From the IMG/VR virus record IMGVR_UViG_3300027852_000096, positions 1 to 39,143 of that record: DNA of 39,143 nucleotides; one strand, given 5' to 3'. A program made the translations under genes and the position numbers. The stretch's first letter is position 1. Every line of letters begins with the position of its first letter. The DNA is from a virus. Positions 11,802-34,721 of this stretch are shown here, one piece after another. Below the pieces are notes generated by a model. It was not told the origin of the DNA, made no database searches, and saw only the letters and a program-made list of their open reading frames with translations.

Positions 11802-11873
11802 TGGGCAAGGAAGGAATCGAACCTTCATACATAGGTGCAACAACCTAAGCTCTAACCACTCGAGCACTTACCC
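11802..11873 (-). tRNA. tRNA with irregular anticodon loop, most likely GUU (Asn)
   Basis: 72 nt. The acceptor pairs GGGTAAG with CTTGCCC plus discriminator A; the D arm has GCTC/GAGC with GTGG in the loop; the T arm is GAAGG-TTCGATT-CCTTC, with the conserved TTCGA. The anticodon arm is odd: TAGGT/ACCTA gives a 6-nt loop (TGTTGC), or TAGG/CCTA an 8-nt loop (TTGTTGCA). In both readings U33 precedes GUU, so Asn is the best guess; G follows the anticodon rather than the usual A. CCA is not encoded. It lies between the DUF669 terminator and the VRR-NUC start, 3 bases from that ATG. It may be functional, a suppressor-like variant, or decaying. Confidence 0.75.
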
Positions 11874-22683: not shown

Positions 22684-22933
22684 GACCTTCCAGAAGACTC
22701 ATTGAAGAGTGCCAGATAAACAACTTGGACTCTTGGGTCATCTGCTCCCATGCTACGTCATCAACCTTCCAGAGCTCATGGTTAATTGCTGGCGGAACTT
22801 GTACCTTAAGCATCCTAGCCGCCTCTTGGTACCTCTGATAACTGAATGCTGGTTGATCCAACATCTCAGCAACCTTGAGAATGCCGTTCGCCCGTCGGCG
22901 TTTACTGAACTGGAGTAATCTTGGGAGGTTCAT
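22676..22933 (-). CDS. Small helical protein of unknown function
   Basis: 85 residues, not recognised. The sequence is helix-rich with a basic N-terminal segment (Lys-Arg-Arg-Arg-Ala) and no cysteine or membrane segment. It overlaps the upstream gene by 32 bases and the downstream gene by 8, so it belongs to the three-gene operon started by the promoter at 23167-23195. No strong SD is visible; coupling to the upstream gene would explain this. Confidence 0.6.
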   Translation of the reverse strand: MNLPRLLQFSKRRRANGILKVAEMLDQPAFSYQRYQEAARMLKVQVPPAINHELWKVDDVAWEQMTQESKLFIWHSSMSLLEGHA

Positions 22934-23135
22934 TGAGCAGCTCCGAATCTCTGTTCTCGAACGCGATGACTACCTGGATAGCCTGTTCATTCTGTAACCA
23001 CTTGAGCACTTCAGTGAGTGGAGCATCTTCACGAAACACCTTGGTATGATTGGCCTTCTGAGAACCTAGAATTCTCATGGTTTGTGGGTCATGGATTGGT
23101 TTGCTGGTCTCAAACGTAGCAACTGCGTATCTCAT
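22902..23135 (-). CDS. Small protein of unknown function, first gene of its operon
   Basis: 77 residues, not recognised. The ATG at 23135 has AAGGAG 7 bases upstream. It is a mixed alpha/beta, charged protein without cysteines or membrane segments. The consensus promoter at 23167-23195 puts it first in the leftward transcript with the genes at 22676 and 22123. Confidence 0.7.
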   Translation of the reverse strand: MRYAVATFETSKPIHDPQTMRILGSQKANHTKVFREDAPLTEVLKWLQNEQAIQVVIAFENRDSELLNEPPKITPVQ

Positions 23136-23166
23136 GCGGGTCTCCTTAGTGAATGTTACTGACTAC

Positions 23167-23195
23167 ATTATATCAAATAAGGTATTCAGTGTCAA
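23167..23195 (-). promoter_or_regulatory. Consensus sigma70 promoter for the 22123-23135 genes
   Basis: On the minus strand TTGACA (23195-23190), 17 bases, TATAAT (23172-23167): again a perfect match. It lies 32 bases upstream of the ATG at 23135 and its -35 overlaps the stop codon of the zinc-ribbon gene at 23192. Confidence 0.85.
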
Positions 23196-23413
23196 CCATT
23201 GATACGTTTAAGCATATACCTATGACCTTCAAGAAGCTTTGTTACCTTATAGGTAAAGCCATCTATTTTGATAGTGCTACCTTTAGTCAGAGGTTTTATT
23301 GGTATTCTAGGTACTGAGGCAACCAGAAAATTATGGCCACACTCATGACATACCTGAGCTTCGCCTGGTTTCAGGCTAGTCTCTTTAAGGCATTTAGGAC
23401 ACTTGAAAGTCAT
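23192..23413 (-). CDS. Zinc-ribbon protein
   Basis: 73 residues. The N-terminal Cys-Pro-Lys-Cys and Cys-His-Glu-Cys pairs (residues 5-8 and 22-25) form a classic zinc ribbon. The rest is beta-rich and basic (Ile-Lys-Ile-Asp-Gly-Phe-Thr-Tyr-Lys-Val), with the look of an SH3-like or small beta-barrel module. AGGAG lies 6 bases upstream of the ATG. Its stop overlaps the -35 of the next promoter. DNA or RNA binding is likely but unspecific. Confidence 0.7.
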   Translation of the reverse strand: MTFKCPKCLKETSLKPGEAQVCHECGHNFLVASVPRIPIKPLTKGSTIKIDGFTYKVTKLLEGHRYMLKRING

Positions 23414-23429
23414 CGACTGCTCCTAAAAT

Positions 23430-23457
23430 AAGAGACGACCTGTCAAAGTCGCCTCTT
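23430..23457 (-). terminator. Hairpin terminator between exported-protein genes and zinc-ribbon gene
   Basis: In the leftward direction AAGAGGCGAC (23457-23448) pairs with GTCGTCTCTT (23439-23430), 10 bp with one G-T, followed by ATTTTAGG. It would end the transcript of the two exported-protein genes. The short U-tract makes it a modest terminator, so some read-through to the zinc-ribbon gene is likely, as no promoter is evident for that gene. Confidence 0.6.
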
Positions 23458-23473
23458 AGTTGATGGTAAGTAA

Positions 23474-23668
23474 TTAGATCGGCCACTCTCCGTAGCCATA
23501 TACCTCGATCATCAGCTCCCAGTAGCAAAGCAACTGAGACGCGGCATTCCACACCATCCCGGTACACGAGTCTGGTAGCTCTGAGGGCATAACCCAGGCC
23601 TTTACCTCAGCGATAGTCGATCCAACCAGACAGGCTAGTACCATGATTACAAGTATAAGCTTTTTCAT
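23474..23668 (-). CDS. Small exported protein with signal peptide
   Basis: 64 residues. Met-Lys-Lys-Leu-Ile-Leu-Val-Ile-Met-Val-Leu-Ala is a typical signal peptide start, with likely cleavage after Ala about 20-24 (Thr-Ile-Ala or Val-Lys-Ala). The mature part of about 40 residues is acidic, with two cysteines (about 35 and 48) that could form a disulphide, and several Trp residues. The SD (GGAGG) is made by the last two codons and stop of the upstream exported-protein gene, so the two are tightly coupled. Superinfection exclusion or envelope modification is a common role for such phage proteins, but this is only a guess. Confidence 0.75.
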   Translation of the reverse strand: MKKLILVIMVLACLVGSTIAEVKAWVMPSELPDSCTGMVWNAASQLLCYWELMIEVYGYGEWPI

Positions 23669-23671
23669 TAT

Positions 23672-24253
23672 CTACCTCCAGTTAATGGTTTTTATTTTCC
23701 TTGAACCAGTCATACTTACGATTTGATCAAGCTTAGTTTCCTTAGGAAAGCGGATTATTACCCGCGGCTCGTCTATACGATTGAGCATAACATGGTTTGG
23801 GTCTACAAACACCGGGCCATCGAGAGTTGTAGCTGTTAAGATCTGATTGTTCTTGGCAACCTGAACAAACACGCCGCAGTCCTGGACTACAAACGACCCA
23901 TCAGCTGTTAAGATTGTTAGGGAAAAGTGTCCTTCTCCACGGGGAATAAACAGCACATCTCTATTAGTTATTATCAGGTTGAAGACTATATAACAGTAGT
24001 TTGGTTCAGTAACAATAGGACCAAAAACCTTTTTTGCAGCATCGGCTAGTGGACTATGAAACTGGACGATATCTTGTCGAGAGTGGATGTACTTCTGCCC
24101 ACTCAGTTCATAGTCCTTATATGAATATAACTCATAGTCATCAGTGCTGCACTTAATGAGTGTCTGAGCTTGCACTACTTCATAGAAGAGGAGAAGTGAG
24201 CAGGTTACTAAGAGGATCAGGAAAAAGGAACGCATGATGACTAGTTGCTTCAT
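23672..24253 (-). CDS. Exported protein with signal peptide
   Basis: 193 residues from the ATG at 24253, 5 bases after AAGGAG; a GTG at 24259 overlaps the SD and is less likely. Residues about 8-28 are a signal sequence (Phe-Phe-Leu-Ile-Leu-Leu-Val-Thr-Cys-Ser-Leu-Leu-Leu-Phe) with likely cleavage at Val-Gln-Ala. A Cys inside that segment does not fit a lipobox well. The mature part is beta-rich with four cysteines, suggesting a periplasmic, disulphide-bonded protein. I do not recognise the family. Its end (Trp-Arg-stop) carries the SD of the next exported-protein gene. Expression passes through the 24270-24347 leader, which contains a terminator-like hairpin. Confidence 0.75.
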   Translation of the reverse strand: MKQLVIMRSFFLILLVTCSLLLFYEVVQAQTLIKCSTDDYELYSYKDYELSGQKYIHSRQDIVQFHSPLADAAKKVFGPIVTEPNYCYIVFNLIITNRDVLFIPRGEGHFSLTILTADGSFVVQDCGVFVQVAKNNQILTATTLDGPVFVDPNHVMLNRIDEPRVIIRFPKETKLDQIVSMTGSRKIKTINWR

Positions 24254-26047: not shown

Positions 26048-26091
26048 AGACGTAATGACGCAACTCCAGGTAACAATAAGAGACCATGGAG

Positions 26092-26129
26092 TTGGAATGA
26101 GGTTTGCATGTCATTGATTGAACGCACAC
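26092..26129 (+). promoter_or_regulatory. TTGGAATGA element, copy 1
   Basis: TTGGAATGAGGTTTGCAT (26092-26109) then an ATTGA-ACGCACAC part to 26129, 7 bases before the AGGAGG of the next gene. The same layout occurs at 27457-27495 (+) and 33043-33005 (-), always just before an SD and small gene. It may be a phage-specific promoter (TTGGAA with an ATTGA -10-like box about 17-18 bases on) or a leader-RNA control site. Confidence 0.6.
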
Positions 26130-26771: not shown

Positions 26772-27417
26772 GAAAGTACTCGAGCAGGTCAGGAAATTGC
26801 TCGCTCTTGCTAAGGATGACGCAGCCTCGGAGAATGAGACCGAGGTTGCGATGGCAGCAGCGCATCGGCTGATGCAGAAACACCGCATCAAAGAGGTAGA
26901 GCTAGGCCAGGTAGACTCGGATTTCGAGATCATGGATAAGGATCTTGCCTGGCTCGGTAGCCGTGCAACCCAATGGAAAGGGTATCTGGCTAAGACTGTC
27001 GCCACTCACAACGGCTGCTATGTCTGGGTCAGTGACCGCGACGGCAATCACTTCATTCAGGTCGCAGGTCGTCCCGAAGACGCTGCCATCGTCTACGAAC
27101 TCTACAGGTTCTGCGTCCGTCAGATCATGGCTATGTCTACAATGCACAAGGGCCGAGGTGCAAGGTTTCTCAATGCCTGGCGAATGGGTGTTATCTTCAC
27201 CATCGACCGACGTCTCCGGGTAGTTACCGAGGAGTTAGCGCAAGGTTCAACCGCTCTTGTGGTCATCAACAATCGGGCTGATGAAGCAGCCAAATTCATC
27301 CAAGACCAAATAAAGCTGAGGCGGCCGAAAGCCAACAAACGCCCACTTGACACAGACGGCTACTTACGAGGATGCCATGACGGCGAACAGATCCGCCTCA
27401 ACAAGGAACTCGAGTGA
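26761..27417 (+). CDS. DUF2786 family protein (TTG start)
   Basis: 218 residues from TTG at 26761, with GGAG 6-7 bases upstream. The N-terminus Lys-Leu-Leu-Ala-Leu-Ala-Lys with Glu-Asn-Glu-x-Glu-Ala(Val)-x-Met-Ala-Ala-Ala-His-Arg-Leu-Met-Gln-Lys-His is the DUF2786 signature. The remainder (about 60-190) matches the usual C-terminal part with Arg-Ala-x-x-Trp-Lys-Gly-x-Leu. The family is common in phages and plasmids; its role is unknown. GC-rich codon use like the upstream gene. The stop codon is within the left arm of the 20-bp inverted repeat 27415-27476. Confidence 0.85.
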   Translation: MDHKKVLEQVRKLLALAKDDAASENETEVAMAAAHRLMQKHRIKEVELGQVDSDFEIMDKDLAWLGSRATQWKGYLAKTVATHNGCYVWVSDRDGNHFIQVAGRPEDAAIVYELYRFCVRQIMAMSTMHKGRGARFLNAWRMGVIFTIDRRLRVVTEELAQGSTALVVINNRADEAAKFIQDQIKLRRPKANKRPLDTDGYLRGCHDGEQIRLNKELE

Positions 27418-27476
27418 TGCAAAACTCATTCCAAGGCACAATGGGGAACCATGGAGTTGGAATGAGTTTTGCATCA
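27415..27476. repeat. Perfect 20-bp inverted repeat around an E-element core
   Basis: 27415-27434 and 27457-27476 are exact reverse complements (TGATGCAAAACTCATTCCAA in the left arm) with a 22-base loop. The right arm is the front of the TTGGAATGA element, so the left arm is an inverted copy of it. As RNA it is a very stable hairpin; as DNA it presents two divergent element copies. Confidence 0.8.
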
Positions 27477-30463: not shown

Positions 30464-30591
30464 TGAAAACGTCACGGTGGTGGGTAAAACTATGTAACCC
30501 ACTCTTCTACCCAATGCTCGTCTTAGTACTAATCGCTGGGTTCGTGGTAGTCACTTGGCAGCAGGTAATGGAGTTAGCTGATGCTGAGTAA
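30463..30591 (+). CDS. 42-codon single-pass membrane protein
   Basis: AGGAGG is 6 bases before the ATG. Residues about 13-33 form one membrane segment (Leu-Phe-Tyr-Pro-Met-Leu-Val-Leu-Val-Leu-Ile-Ala-Gly-Phe), with a basic front, Nin-Cout by the positive-inside rule. It overlaps both neighbours. Unknown role. Confidence 0.6.
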   Translation: MKTSRWWVKLCNPLFYPMLVLVLIAGFVVVTWQQVMELADAE

Positions 30592-30784
30592 AGCACACCA
30601 AAAAACAATGACTATGTATGAGGAAAGATTGTGCAAACTCCACAGAGAATTGGAGGCTGAGAAGCGGCGGGTGAGGTTTTATAAGAGCCTGCTGGAAGGC
30701 CAGCGTCAAGCTGTAGAATTAGCACATGATTACATAGCTTTTCTACTAGGCGGCGGTGAGGGTAAAACCCGGCGAGGTGCGTAA
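30581..30784 (+). CDS. Small coiled-coil protein
   Basis: 67 residues. About residues 12-50 give a long amphipathic, charged helix (Glu-Glu-Arg-Leu-Cys-Lys-Leu-His-Arg-Glu-Leu-Glu). It is started inside the upstream membrane-protein gene with SD GGAG about 10 bases before. It is the last gene before the 235-bp nested inverted repeat. Unknown role, possibly working with the membrane protein. Confidence 0.55.
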   Translation: MLSKAHQKTMTMYEERLCKLHRELEAEKRRVRFYKSLLEGQRQAVELAHDYIAFLLGGGEGKTRRGA

Positions 30785-30867
30785 GTCGTTGCTATCATTG
30801 ACGATCAAGGGAGCTTAGCGGGTGATAAGTTATTTTACGGGTTTTCGCCGGCGTGTATATTTATGTA

Positions 30868-31102
30868 AAAATCTCACTAATGTATAAGTTGTTGAAAATA
30901 CACTACTTATAAAAATCATAGAGCTCCAATAATAGGAAATAGACGCTCCACAAATAGACACTTTCTCAATTAATAGGCAAAAAGCCCTAAGACGGCAATT
31001 TACCTATTAATTGAGAGACGTGCATTTGTGGAGCTATTAATGAGATAGGTATATATACATAAGTAGTATATATATCAACGACTTATACATTAGTGAGATT
31101 TT
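30868..31102. repeat. Nested inverted repeats forming a 235-bp fold-back structure
   Basis: Three nested pairs of arms: outer 30868-30889 with 31081-31102 (22 bp exact, then after one T-G by GTTGA/TCAAC, and CTACTTAT 30903-30910 with ATAAGTAG 31059-31066); middle GCTCCACAAAT (30945-30955) with ATTTGTGGAGC (31024-31034); inner TCTCAATTAATAGG (30964-30977) with CCTATTAATTGAGA (31003-31016). The loop contains GCC/GGC. No gene overlaps it. Candidates: replication origin cruciform, structured RNA, or remnant of a small mobile element with terminal inverted repeats. There is no obvious target duplication. Confidence 0.8.
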
Positions 31103-31448
31103 GTGAATTTAATACGCATGCGCGACCCTGAGCCATCTTGCCATTATGGCATCTGAAAAGCCGAAATCGGCCGGTGGCCACGTCGGTAGAGCGAGCCATT
31201 TTGCTGTGCGTTAAAAGACGCAACACCTTCTCCTCTGTGGACCGCAAGTACGAACCCTGGTCAGACTTACGGATAGTGCAAAATGACGCAGAAGGTGTGC
31301 AAAATGACGCACAGCGAGTAGACAACGCGCTACCGTACGCTACCACACGCTAATATGGTGGACCATAACGACAGGCACGACGATTGCAATAGACTATGTA
31401 CGTGCGACAATGCACAAGACACTGAAACCCTACGATGGAGGAAATGAC
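31103..31448 (+). other. Intergenic region with iteron-like repeats
   Basis: No gene with a proper start is seen in these 346 bases. It holds direct repeats GTGCAAAATGACGCA at 31276-31290 and 31297-31311, 21 bp apart (two helical turns), with an inverted partial copy CATTTTGC at 31197-31204 and TGCGT/ACGCA arms near 31207-31221. These look like operators or iterons for the gene at 31449 or for replication start. No convincing sigma70 promoter is seen. Confidence 0.5.
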
Positions 31449-31733
31449 ATGAGCAAGAAGACCAACAAGGCGAACAACACACCGAAGACCGACGAGAAGA
31501 CCGAAGCGAAGGTCGAAACCTGCACCGTCGCCGCCATCGCCCGCGACAACGGCATTGACCCGAAGATCGCCCGCGCCAAGCTGCGCAGGATCTACGGTGC
31601 GGACGATGCGTCGCCGAAACTGCCCAAGCCCATCACGCAGGGCAAGTGGACGTTCGACGCCAAGTACGAAGCCGAGCTCCTGGAGCTGATGACCTCCGTG
31701 CAGGCGAAGGTCTCGAACAAGGTCTCGAAGTAG
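31449..31733 (+). CDS. KLRR-type helix-turn-helix DNA-binding protein, free paralogue
   Basis: 94 residues from the ATG at 31449, 7 bases after GGAGG (an upstream ATG at 31410 has no SD). A Lys/Thr-rich tail of about 30 residues leads to the HTH: Thr-Val-Ala-Ala-Ile-Ala-Arg-Asp-Asn-Gly-Ile-Asp-Pro-Lys-Ile-Ala-Arg-Ala-Lys-Leu, then Arg-Arg, and a Trp-Thr-Phe strand with an acidic helix. The same layout forms the SNF2 C-terminus and the recoded island gene at 34253. Third positions are nearly all G or C, a sign of high expression or recent transfer. Likely a DNA-binding or nucleoid-type regulator; the target is unknown, with the nearby iterons a candidate. Confidence 0.75.
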   Translation: MSKKTNKANNTPKTDEKTEAKVETCTVAAIARDNGIDPKIARAKLRRIYGADDASPKLPKPITQGKWTFDAKYEAELLELMTSVQAKVSNKVSK

Positions 31734-32074: not shown

Positions 32075-32215
32075 ATTGTCGTGAATACATGTCTAGTGGC
32101 AATTCTAAGCGTGCCAGTGGCGTGCTAGAGCATGACGGATGACAAAAAATGATACGATGTATCACATTTTAATAACCGGTCGCCTAGAGACGCCGCTGGA
32201 CGCGCCATGGATTCG

Positions 32216-32274
32216 TGGTAGCTGGTAGCCATCTTGGTAGCTGGTAGCTATCTTGGTAGCTGGTAGGTGGTAGC
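32216..32274. repeat. TGGTAGCTGGTAG tandem repeats, first array
   Basis: A 19-bp unit TGGTAGCTGGTAGCYATCT occurs at 32216-32234 and 32235-32253, then a partial copy to about 32274. Related TGGTAGCTGGTAG and CCGGTAGACTGGTAG units recur at about 33080-33150. In the space between lie only three leftward small genes. No fixed repeat-spacer pattern is seen, so it is not a CRISPR. Replication or recombination repeats are possible. Confidence 0.7.
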
Positions 32275-33079: not shown

Positions 33080-33177
33080 ATCTGGTAGATTTTTATTTCT
33101 GGTAGCTGGCCGGTAGACTGGTAGCTGGTAGGCTTGGTAGCTGGTAGGGCCGGGTGGCCGCAGGGCCGGGTGGCGAG
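33080..33177. repeat. TGGTAGCTGGTAG / GGGCCGGGTGGC repeats, second array
   Basis: Units TGGTAGCTGG, GGTAGACTGGTAGCTGGTAG and TGGTAGCTGGTAGG are followed by GGGCCGGGTGGC twice (near 33147-33174). This GC-rich, GG-rich block ends at 33177, exactly where the RG-free island begins. The change in composition at the junction is abrupt. Confidence 0.65.
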
Positions 33178-33180
33178 TCA

Positions 33181-33202
33181 AATGTTACGAATTTGTAACA
33201 TT
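33181..33202. repeat. Left terminal palindrome of the island
   Basis: AATGTTAC (33181-33188), GAATTT, GTAACATT (33195-33202). The same ATGTTAC-N6-GTAACAT arrangement ends the island at 34653-34672. It begins 3 bases inside the island boundary. A further, related TTACGAATTTGTAA is at 33220-33233. Confidence 0.8.
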
Positions 33203-33238
33203 ACAATATTGTGACAATATTACGAATTTGTAATATTA

Positions 33239-33365
33239 CAATTATGCAATGTACATTGCAACAATGTAACAATTCAATTGTTGCAATTATGCAATGTACA
33301 TTGCAATAATGTAACAATTCAATTGTTGCAATTATGCAACATATATTACAATTATGCAACAAATG
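33239..33365. repeat. 45-bp tandem repeat at the left of the island
   Basis: A 45-bp unit starting CAATTATGCAATGTACATTG begins at 33239 and 33284, with a single C/T change between copies; a partial third begins at 33329. Each unit contains the palindromes GCAATGTACATTGC and ACAAT-TC-ATTGT. It resembles iterons or a strong binding array; no gene overlaps it. Confidence 0.8.
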
Positions 33366-33376
33366 TTACAATGTGA

Positions 33377-33634
33377 TTAATACAATATTGATTCAAACAA
33401 ATGACAAAATGCGTCAAAATTGTCATTTTGAATGTCATTTAATATTGTATTATGATTACAAAAAAATGACATACATTCAATTACACATTGCAATTGCATA
33501 AATGTTTTTACGTCATTTTCATGTGAATGTACGTTATCATAAATCACATTCATAACACGTATTGCGTTATCATCATGTTTAATGTGATCAAAAATAACGT
33601 ATTCGATTGATTTTTCAATCAATGTACGTTTCAT
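33377..33634 (-). CDS. Island gene A: 85-residue protein of unknown function
   Basis: The ATG at 33634 is preceded by AACGAAACGAATGAAACG, the leader shared with the other island genes, which supports it as real. It has no Gly, Pro or Trp, as forced by the alphabet, and five cysteines near residues 50-80. Mixed, acidic/His-rich, no membrane segment. It lies 27 bases after the stop of gene D and so forms a leftward pair with it. No family recognised. Confidence 0.55.
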   Translation of the reverse strand: MKRTLIEKSIEYVIFDHIKHDDNAIRVMNVIYDNVHSHENDVKTFMQLQCVIECMSFFCNHNTILNDIQNDNFDAFCHLFESILY

Positions 33635-33661
33635 CGTTTCATTCGTTTCGTTATATGCACG

Positions 33662-33775
33662 TTAATGCATGATTGATGCGATAACAAACACAAAATACGC
33701 AATGACAATTACAATCGTCATATGCGTTTCGATGAATTCATTTACACGTTTCGTGTTTTTTGTATCATTGTACAT
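33662..33775 (-). CDS. Island gene D: 37-residue single-pass membrane protein
   Basis: ATG at 33775 after AACGAAACGACGAAACA, close to the shared island leader. Residues 1-18 are polar and charged (Asn-Asp-Thr-Lys-Asn-Thr-Lys-Arg), and residues about 19-36 are one membrane segment (Met-Thr-Ile-Val-Ile-Val-Ile-Ala-Tyr-Phe-Val-Phe-Val). Similar in plan to gene B on the other strand. First gene of the leftward island transcript. Confidence 0.5.
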   Translation of the reverse strand: MYNDTKNTKRVNEFIETHMTIVIVIAYFVFVIASIMH

Positions 33776-34089
33776 TGTTTCGTCGTTTCGTTATGTGCAT
33801 TTGCACGTTCAATCATATACATGCATTTATCATGCACAATCGATTAAAAATCATAACGTGTTATTATACAACGTGTTATAATATACGTGTATATCGTGAT
33901 ATCGTGTAATCGTGCAAACGTGTGCAATGCATAATGCATTATGCAATGTATTATTGAACGTCGAATAAACGTGTATATGCATAACGTATTGATATTAAAC
34001 AACATACGATTTTATTGTGTTTTGTCACGATACATGCATTGTCATGTGTACACGCGTCAAACATGACGCACAACGAAACGAATGAAACG
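33776..34089. promoter_or_regulatory. Divergent control region between the two island operons
   Basis: 314 bases without a clear gene. It contains an 18-bp palindrome TGCATAATGCATTATGCA (33928-33945), several CACGTT/AACGTG and GTGTAT/ATACAC pairs, and A/T-rich -10-like boxes (on the minus strand TTGTATAAT near 33873-33865). No TTGACA is possible to the left of an allowed base only by chance; TTGACG occurs at 34201 on the plus strand. Promoters for both operons should lie here, but I cannot fix them. Confidence 0.45.
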
Positions 34090-34212
34090 ATGAAACGCAT
34101 GAACAAAAACATTTCGACGATTATCATGATTACGTTTGCAATTGCATCGTTTGCATTCGTCATTGAATTGATTGAATTCGTATACGTCAATACATACGTG
34201 TTGACGCATTAA
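34090..34212 (+). CDS. Island gene B: 40-residue single-pass membrane protein
   Basis: ATG at 34090 after AACGAAACGAATGAAACG (34072-34089). The basic front (Met-Lys-Arg-Met-Asn-Lys-Asn) and a membrane segment at about 9-32 (Thr-Ile-Ile-Met-Ile-Thr-Phe-Ala-Ile-Ala-Ser-Phe-Ala-Phe-Val-Ile) make a small inner-membrane protein. No Gly, Pro or Trp. First gene of the rightward island operon; gene C follows after 40 bases. Confidence 0.5.
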   Translation: MKRMNKNISTIIMITFAIASFAFVIELIEFVYVNTYVLTH

Positions 34213-34252
34213 ACAACGTGCATTGATGCACACAACGAAACGAATGAATGAC

Positions 34253-34519
34253 ATGAACACGCATGATGAAAACACGACGATGACGATTGATGTGATCACG
34301 TTTGATGACGTTGCGAACGATGACAATGAAACGTTCGACGTTGTGAACGTTGCACGCGCATTGTCGATCGATTGCAAACGTGCGCGTGCGCGTATGCGCG
34401 CGAACGAACGCAACGACAACGATGACACGCGCATCGACGTTCATCGTATCAACAATGTTCACACATACGTGCGTGACGAATTCGACGATGTATTGCGAAT
34501 CGTCACGAATCACAAATAA
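34253..34519 (+). CDS. Island gene C: recoded KLRR-type helix-turn-helix protein
   Basis: 88 residues from the ATG at 34253, 4 bases after AACGAAACGAATGAA (in-frame ATGs at 34223 and 34244 are less well placed). Residues about 30-50 (Val-Val-Asn-Val-Ala-Arg-Ala-Leu-Ser-Ile-Asp-Cys-Lys-Arg-Ala-Arg-Ala-Arg-Met-Arg) align without gaps to the HTH of the 31449 protein, about 10 of 21 identical, with Ser for Gly and Cys for Pro, which cannot be encoded here. The end (Arg-Asp-Glu-Phe-Asp-Asp-Val) matches Lys-Ala-Glu-Phe-Asn-Glu-Val of the SNF2 copy. So this is a real gene kept functional under the island's rule. Probably the island's DNA-binding regulator. Confidence 0.7.
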   Translation: MNTHDENTTMTIDVITFDDVANDDNETFDVVNVARALSIDCKRARARMRANERNDNDDTRIDVHRINNVHTYVRDEFDDVLRIVTNHK

Positions 34520-34535
34520 CGATTTTCGTTTCGTG

Positions 34536-34590
34536 CAACGTGTCGCGCATAAATCATGCGCGATACGTTGTTTATTTATTTTTTTATTTA
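34536..34590 (+). terminator. Intrinsic terminator of the island, written without AG/GG/CT/CC
   Basis: CAACGTGTCGCGCAT (34536-34550) pairs with ATGCGCGATACGTTG (34556-34570), 15 bp with one G-T pair and a 5-nt loop, followed by TTTATTTATTTTTTTATTTA (34571-34590). It closes the rightward operon of genes B and C. Confidence 0.88.
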
Positions 34591-34651
34591 TTTGTAACAC
34601 ACATGTCATGTATGTAATATAATAAAATTGCAACAATTGTGACAAAATCGC

Positions 34652-34672
34652 AATGTTACATTATTGTAACAT
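34652..34672. repeat. Right terminal palindrome of the island
   Basis: AATGTTAC (34652-34659), ATTATT, GTAACAT (34666-34672). Same arrangement as at 33181-33202; the island ends one base later. Upstream, CAACAATTGTGACAA resembles pieces of the left repeat array. Confidence 0.8.
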
Positions 34673-34721
34673 GCCCTAAGCCCCGCCAGTAGCGCCCGCC
34701 AAAATTTTAGAGAGAAGCTTC

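What the first reader, a model, noticed from the sequence alone, without database searches (positions are those of the whole stretch)
30868..31102. 235-bp nested inverted repeats at an operon boundary
Arms of 22 (extended to 28), 11 and 14 bp are exactly nested, without coding content. The compensatory layout is unlikely by chance. It could be a replication origin, a structured RNA, or a MITE-like insertion. It lies by an iteron-like repeat pair.
Basis: seen in the sequence. Interest (0 to 1): 0.75.

Follow-up and report, generated by a model that had tools for sequence, protein, structure and literature searches.

The report
Palindromic phage control region, IHF-type sites
A 235-base, nearly self-complementary, non-coding stretch in a tailed-phage genome carries, in its outer arms, a DNA-bending-protein-type binding motif that related phages keep upstream of promoters, so it is most likely a DNA switch region rather than a jumping element or an RNA.

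Summary
The palindrome is real. Window 30868-31102 (235 bp, 30% GC between flanks of 50-54%) folds far better than shuffles (z about -15 on both strands). Its 28-, 11- and 14-nt arms are nested as described. The window is a fragment of a siphophage-like virus. The element has one copy. It has no Rfam match, no exact target duplication at the arm ends, and no relative in phages, plasmids, IMG/VR, GTDB genomes or 50 polymerase-related records at the sensitivity used. A motif in the outer arms links it to something. Six related phages carry YTAAGTCRTTGATTT in the intergenic region before a DNA-binding-protein gene, usually with a second inverted copy. A matrix built from those six, without the window, has its best hit in the whole window inside the right arm and its second best 86 bp upstream of the hairpin. 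The motif contains the IHF consensus WATCAANNNNTTR. In other relatives it lies about 21 bp upstream of sigma-70-like promoters. I read the element as a phage-own, DNA-level control region with two IHF-type sites in a palindrome, most likely acting on transcription; an origin remains possible. Protein binding and function are inferred. Noticed nearby and much stranger: a 1498-bp stretch (33177-34674) with no AG, GG, CC or CT.

The parts
30868..31102 (.). 235-bp imperfect palindrome, 30% GC, non-coding
30868..30895 (+). outer left arm (22 exact, 28 with one mismatch)
31075..31102 (-). outer right arm
30945..30955 (+). middle arm GCTCCACAAAT (partner 31024-31034)
30964..30977 (+). inner arm TCTCAATTAATAGG (partner 31003-31016)
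31072..31085 (-). family motif TAAGTCGTTGATAT; holds the exact IHF consensus TATCAACGACTTA at 31073-31085 (+). Best family-matrix hit of the whole window
30885..30897 (-). second, weaker copy in the left arm, TTTCAACAACTTA (IHF consensus with 1 mismatch)
30782..30794 (-). third copy TAGCAACGACTTA (1 mismatch), 86 bp left of the hairpin; second-best matrix hit of the window
31276..31311 (+). two 15-bp direct repeats GTGCAAAATGACGCA, 21 bp apart; possible operators
31449..31733 (+). small helix-turn-helix-like protein (94 aa), next gene downstream

Best explanation
A phage-own cis-acting DNA control region. Two inverted copies of an IHF-type bending site sit in the outer arms of a long AT-rich palindrome, with a third copy 86 bp upstream. 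IHF (or a protein of the same specificity) binding both arms would bend the DNA and bring the arms together, setting the activity of the promoter of the following small-regulator operon (31.4-32.0 kb). Shown: the palindrome, the motif, and its conservation at promoter-upstream and intergenic sites in relatives. Inferred: binding, bending or looping, and promoter control. The same architecture could serve an origin.
For: Six relatives (DNA polymerase about 47-50% identical) have a roughly 330-440 bp intergenic region carrying YTAAGTCRTTGATTT, usually with a second inverted copy. In G008 the two copies lie in a near-perfect 27-nt inverted repeat, as in the window. The matrix made without window data has its top hit (17.4) in the hairpin arm and its second at 30782. 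Shuffles of the hairpin reach that score in 1 of 3000; shuffles of the wider region in 0 of 3000. Expected hits of 17 or more in the window are 0.05. In 44 untrained relatives, 6 hits score 20 or more against 0 in Markov controls; L237 adds another copy. WATCAANNNNTTR (PMC8942017) occurs exactly twice in the window, once in the arm. In W02, G004 and G013, two of their three exact sites lie in the motif region. In G016, G027, G031, G032 and G045 the motif lies about 21 bp upstream of a sigma-70-like promoter.
Against: The left-arm copy is a weak match. The orientation is inside-out relative to relatives: the window's sites read TAAGT..TTGA then TCAA..ACTTA, whereas relatives have the reverse order. 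No strong sigma-70 promoter is predicted next to the arms. The window lacks detectable orthologues of the gene cluster flanking the region in relatives, so the position is analogous, not proven homologous. The motif was first spotted by eye when comparing arms, so some post hoc selection remains. The host, and whether it has IHF, is unknown.
Confidence: 0.48

Rival explanations
1. A MITE-like foldback element (non-autonomous transposon) that inserted into the phage; the IHF-type site is part of its ends, as in Correia/NEMIS elements.
For: Sharp compositional boundaries (30% against 50-54% GC), terminal inverted repeats, AT-rich, non-coding. The 155-bp Neisseria MITE carries an IHF site that binds IHF in vitro (PMC2229807).
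Against: Single copy. No relative by exact or gapped terminal-repeat patterns in IMG/VR and 84,980 GTDB genomes, nor by blastn in phages, plasmids and 50 related records. No duplication at the arm ends; the best nearby match (ATTTA, shifted 4 bp) is as good as in 35% of random sites.
Confidence: 0.2
2. A replication origin: AT-rich palindrome plus bending sites plus direct repeats melted by the phage primase-helicase.
For: AT-rich inverted repeats, IHF-type sites and two 15-bp direct repeats lie within about 530 bp; the phage encodes its own polymerase and primase-helicase.
Against: GC-skew extremes do not coincide with the motif in the window or in seven relatives. In several relatives the motif lies directly upstream of a promoter. 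Only two direct repeats; the primase-helicase gene is 8.7 kb away.
Confidence: 0.17
3. A structured RNA: a long hairpin in the 3' part of the upstream transcript acting as an RNase III processing site, attenuator or small RNA.
For: Exceptional fold energy on both strands; no terminator detected on the + strand between the upstream gene and 32037, so read-through transcription is plausible.
Against: No Rfam family. Arm mismatches do not favour wobble on one strand (2 against 3, read from the alignment). No homologues, so covariation is untestable. The motif in the arms matches a DNA site that lies upstream of promoters in relatives.
Confidence: 0.12

Closest known systems
IHF-dependent control regions of phages and promoters (IHF consensus WATCAANNNNTTR, PMC8942017)
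   Same: Exact consensus in the right arm, one-mismatch copies in the left arm and at 30782; promoter-upstream placement of the motif in relatives
   Different: Here the sites sit inside the arms of a 235-bp palindrome and share extra bases (GTNR in the spacer) conserved across the phage group; binding untested
Correia/NEMIS elements of Neisseria (MITEs with an IHF site, PMC2229807)
   Same: Short, non-coding, terminal inverted repeats, IHF-type site
   Different: Single copy, no exact target duplication at the arm ends, no family found, lies in a phage
Intergenic motif regions of related siphophages MW202777, OP947159 and IMG/VR G004, G005, G008, G010
   Same: TAAGTCRTTGAT copies next to genes for helix-turn-helix-like proteins; G008 also as a long inverted repeat
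   Different: Neighbouring genes not orthologous by the test used; site order inverted; longer palindrome in the window

Membership tests
IHF-type binding region | match to WATCAANNNNTTR | tested here: met
   exact at 31073; one mismatch at 30885 and 30782
IHF-type binding region | IHF binds and bends the DNA | not testable with these tools
   needs gel shift or footprinting
Shared control region of this phage group | group motif present above chance | tested here: met
Shared control region of this phage group | same neighbouring genes as in relatives | tested here: not met
   no window match for the cluster proteins at E 0.02; the window is a fragment
MITE | terminal inverted repeats, non-coding, short | tested here: met
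MITE | target-site duplication | tested here: not met
   none at the arm ends; ATTTA offset by 4 bp is at chance level
MITE | several copies or relatives elsewhere | tested here: not met
Iteron origin | array of initiator-binding repeats with adjacent initiator gene | tested here: inconclusive
   two repeats only; initiator unknown
Known structured RNA | match to a covariance model | tested here: not met
   gathering thresholds
Intrinsic terminator | short GC-rich stem followed by U-run | tested here: not met
   one search lists none in the hairpin

The most novel reading that the evidence does not exclude
The palindrome and the AG/GG/CC/CT-free island 2 kb downstream are two parts of one unrecognised replication or packaging control locus of this phage group, each associated with a paralogous small helix-turn-helix-like protein.
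Probability: 0.1. Interest if true: 0.85.

Novelty: new variant of a known kind. Interest (0 to 1): 0.4.

Why it matters
If right, it adds a motif (TAAGTNRTTGAT, IHF-type), which I did not find described in the few paper searches I made, lying upstream of promoters across a broad group of environmental phages, and shows one case where the sites were built into a long palindrome. It gives an exact, testable site for how these phages might use a host DNA-bending protein.

Tried and rejected
Rfam, Pfam and PHROGs on neighbours: nothing informative for the element. Exact arm and gapped arm-pair scans: no match. Flanking proteins as bait in IMG/VR: no relatives; the polymerase alignment worked. The foldbacks in G008 and G010 were first taken as possible copies of the element; they share only the motif. 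GC skew gave no origin signal. A papers search for YuA-like phage intergenic repeats gave nothing on point, nor did one for MITEs in phage genomes. A 5-bp ATTTA duplication offset by 4 bp was rejected as chance level.

Full report
What is there. Window 30868-31102 is a 235-bp imperfect palindrome. The outer arms pair over 28 nt with one mismatch, followed by a 13-nt, an 11-nt and a 14-nt pair nested inwards. The whole element matches its own reverse complement at 72%. As RNA it folds at -95.4 (+) and -105.5 kcal/mol (-), z -15.0 and -15.7; as DNA z -13.8. GC is 30% against 50% (left) and 54% (right) in the adjoining kilobases. Overlapping ORFs are short and look spurious. The neighbours at 30581-30784 and 31449-31733 are both on the + strand.

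Context. The window is an IMG/VR virus record. It holds tail genes, an endolysin, a helicase, a DNA polymerase (PolA-like by the names of its hits), a Sak4-like annealing protein, an exonuclease, thymidylate synthase and kinase, and a primase-helicase. Nearest named relatives by polymerase are Caudoviricetes sp. MW202777 (47%), Desulfofustis phage OP947159 (50%) and a Brevundimonas phage ON529867 (43%). An alignment-based scan gave 80 more loci, and I pulled most of 46 of the genomes behind them.

No direct relative. The element is unique in the window. It had no significant match in phage or plasmid records or in 50 related virus records (best E 0.03, short words only). Exact arm patterns found nothing in IMG/VR or GTDB, nor did paired-arm patterns with a 190-220 bp gap.

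The link to relatives. Six relatives share a cluster of genes for helix-turn-helix-like proteins followed by a roughly 330-440 bp intergenic region (G005 and G006 are near-identical here and count once). In it lies CCTAAGTCATTGATCC (W01), ATTAAGCCATTGATTT (W02), CTTAAGTGATTGATTT (G004), CCTAAGTCGTTGATTT (G005), ATTAAGTCATTGAAAA (G008) and CCTAAGTCATTGTTTT (G010), mostly with a second, inverted copy upstream. In G008 the copies lie in a 27-nt inverted repeat. A weight matrix of these six sites, without the window, was scanned over the window. With the 14-base core the best hit (17.4) is the hairpin's right arm (31072, minus strand) and the second (14.1) is at 30782, 86 bp left of the hairpin; with a 16-base version 30780 ranks first and the arm third, behind a hit inside a tail gene. 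Dinucleotide shuffles of the hairpin reach the top score in 1 of 3000; of the region in 0 of 3000. A Markov control predicts 0.05 such hits in the window. Among 44 relatives not used for training, 6 sites score 20 or more against none in Markov controls, including an inverted pair 75 bp apart in G013. L237 holds a further exact TAAGTCATTGATTT.

What the motif is. Its reverse complement fits the IHF consensus WATCAANNNNTTR (PMC8942017). Exact matches are rare in these genomes (2 in the window; 0-4 in the relatives checked) and concentrate in the motif regions: W02 two of three, G004 two of three, G013 two of three, G008 one of one. W01 and G010 have no exact match, so the match to IHF is a group tendency, not a rule. 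In G016, G027, G031, G032 and G045 the motif is followed after about 21 bp by a sigma-70-like promoter and a small gene; these five look like one clade, so they are not five independent cases.

Mechanism (inferred). Two IHF-type sites in the arms of an AT-rich palindrome would let a bending protein bring the arms together and so control the promoter of the downstream small-regulator operon. That IHF is the protein, that bending occurs, and that the target is transcription are all inference. An origin would use the same parts. The GC-skew test gave no support for an origin, though skew in phages mostly follows gene direction.

Limits. The left-arm copy is weak, the order of the two sites is opposite to that in relatives, and the neighbouring genes are not detectably orthologous. 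The comparison that revealed the motif was partly made by eye before the test. Without close relatives neither covariation nor an empty site can be examined.

Seen in passing. Window 33177-34674 contains no AG, GG, CC or CT over 1498 bases; the next longest such run in the window is 39 bases. Relative G002 has the same kind of island (22744-24045; runs of 365, 73 and 852 bases), with its own open frames. Weaker depletion surrounds a helix-turn-helix-like gene in OP947159 (16 such dinucleotides per 300 bp against a mean of 77) and MW202777. The window island holds an open frame (34250-34519) resembling the protein at 31449-31733 (E 2e-4 in a single comparison). This is reported separately because it is not part of the finding, but I consider it the most surprising feature of the window.

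Noticed in passing
window 33177-34674: 1498-bp island with zero AG, GG, CC or CT on either strand (every G preceded by a pyrimidine, every C followed by a purine); next longest run in the window is 39 bp. It bars Shine-Dalgarno-like AGG, yet contains a 90-codon open frame (34250-34519) resembling the helix-turn-helix-like protein at 31449-31733. Possible causes not tested: a DNA-modification or nicking motif avoided, primase sites avoided, context-specific mutation.
   Followed up: partly
L118:2744-4045 (G002, IMGVR_UViG_3300042475_004015): A second such island in a related phage (runs of 365, 73 and 852 bp free of AG/GG/CC/CT; CG also looks absent by eye), flanked by tandem repeats and TTGGTAGAGA repeats, with two open frames.
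   Followed up: partly
L111:1131-1640 (OP947159), L112 around 10087 (MW202777), L247:1482-1800: Weaker depletion of the same dinucleotides around or near a conserved small helix-turn-helix-like gene in other relatives.
   Followed up: partly
window 32211-32266 and 33095-33150: Repeats of GGTAGCTGGTAG left of the island; G002 also has TGGTAG repeats beside its island.
   Followed up: no
window 33236-33370: Tandem 45-bp units, two of which hold the palindrome GCAATGTACATTGC, inside the island's left end.
   Followed up: no
window 26065-26109 and 27430-27474: A 45-bp sequence repeated at 82%; the second copy overlaps a 20-nt perfect inverted repeat (27415-27434 / 27457-27476).
   Followed up: no
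L130:4203-4342 and L131:19164-19460: Long inverted repeats in the intergenic motif region of relatives G008 and G010; G010 arms ACTCACGACTTATACCAT resemble the window arm.
   Followed up: yes
window 11802-11873: tRNA gene with an unusual four-base anticodon call (gttg), minus strand, overlapping the start of an HNH endonuclease ORF.
   Followed up: no
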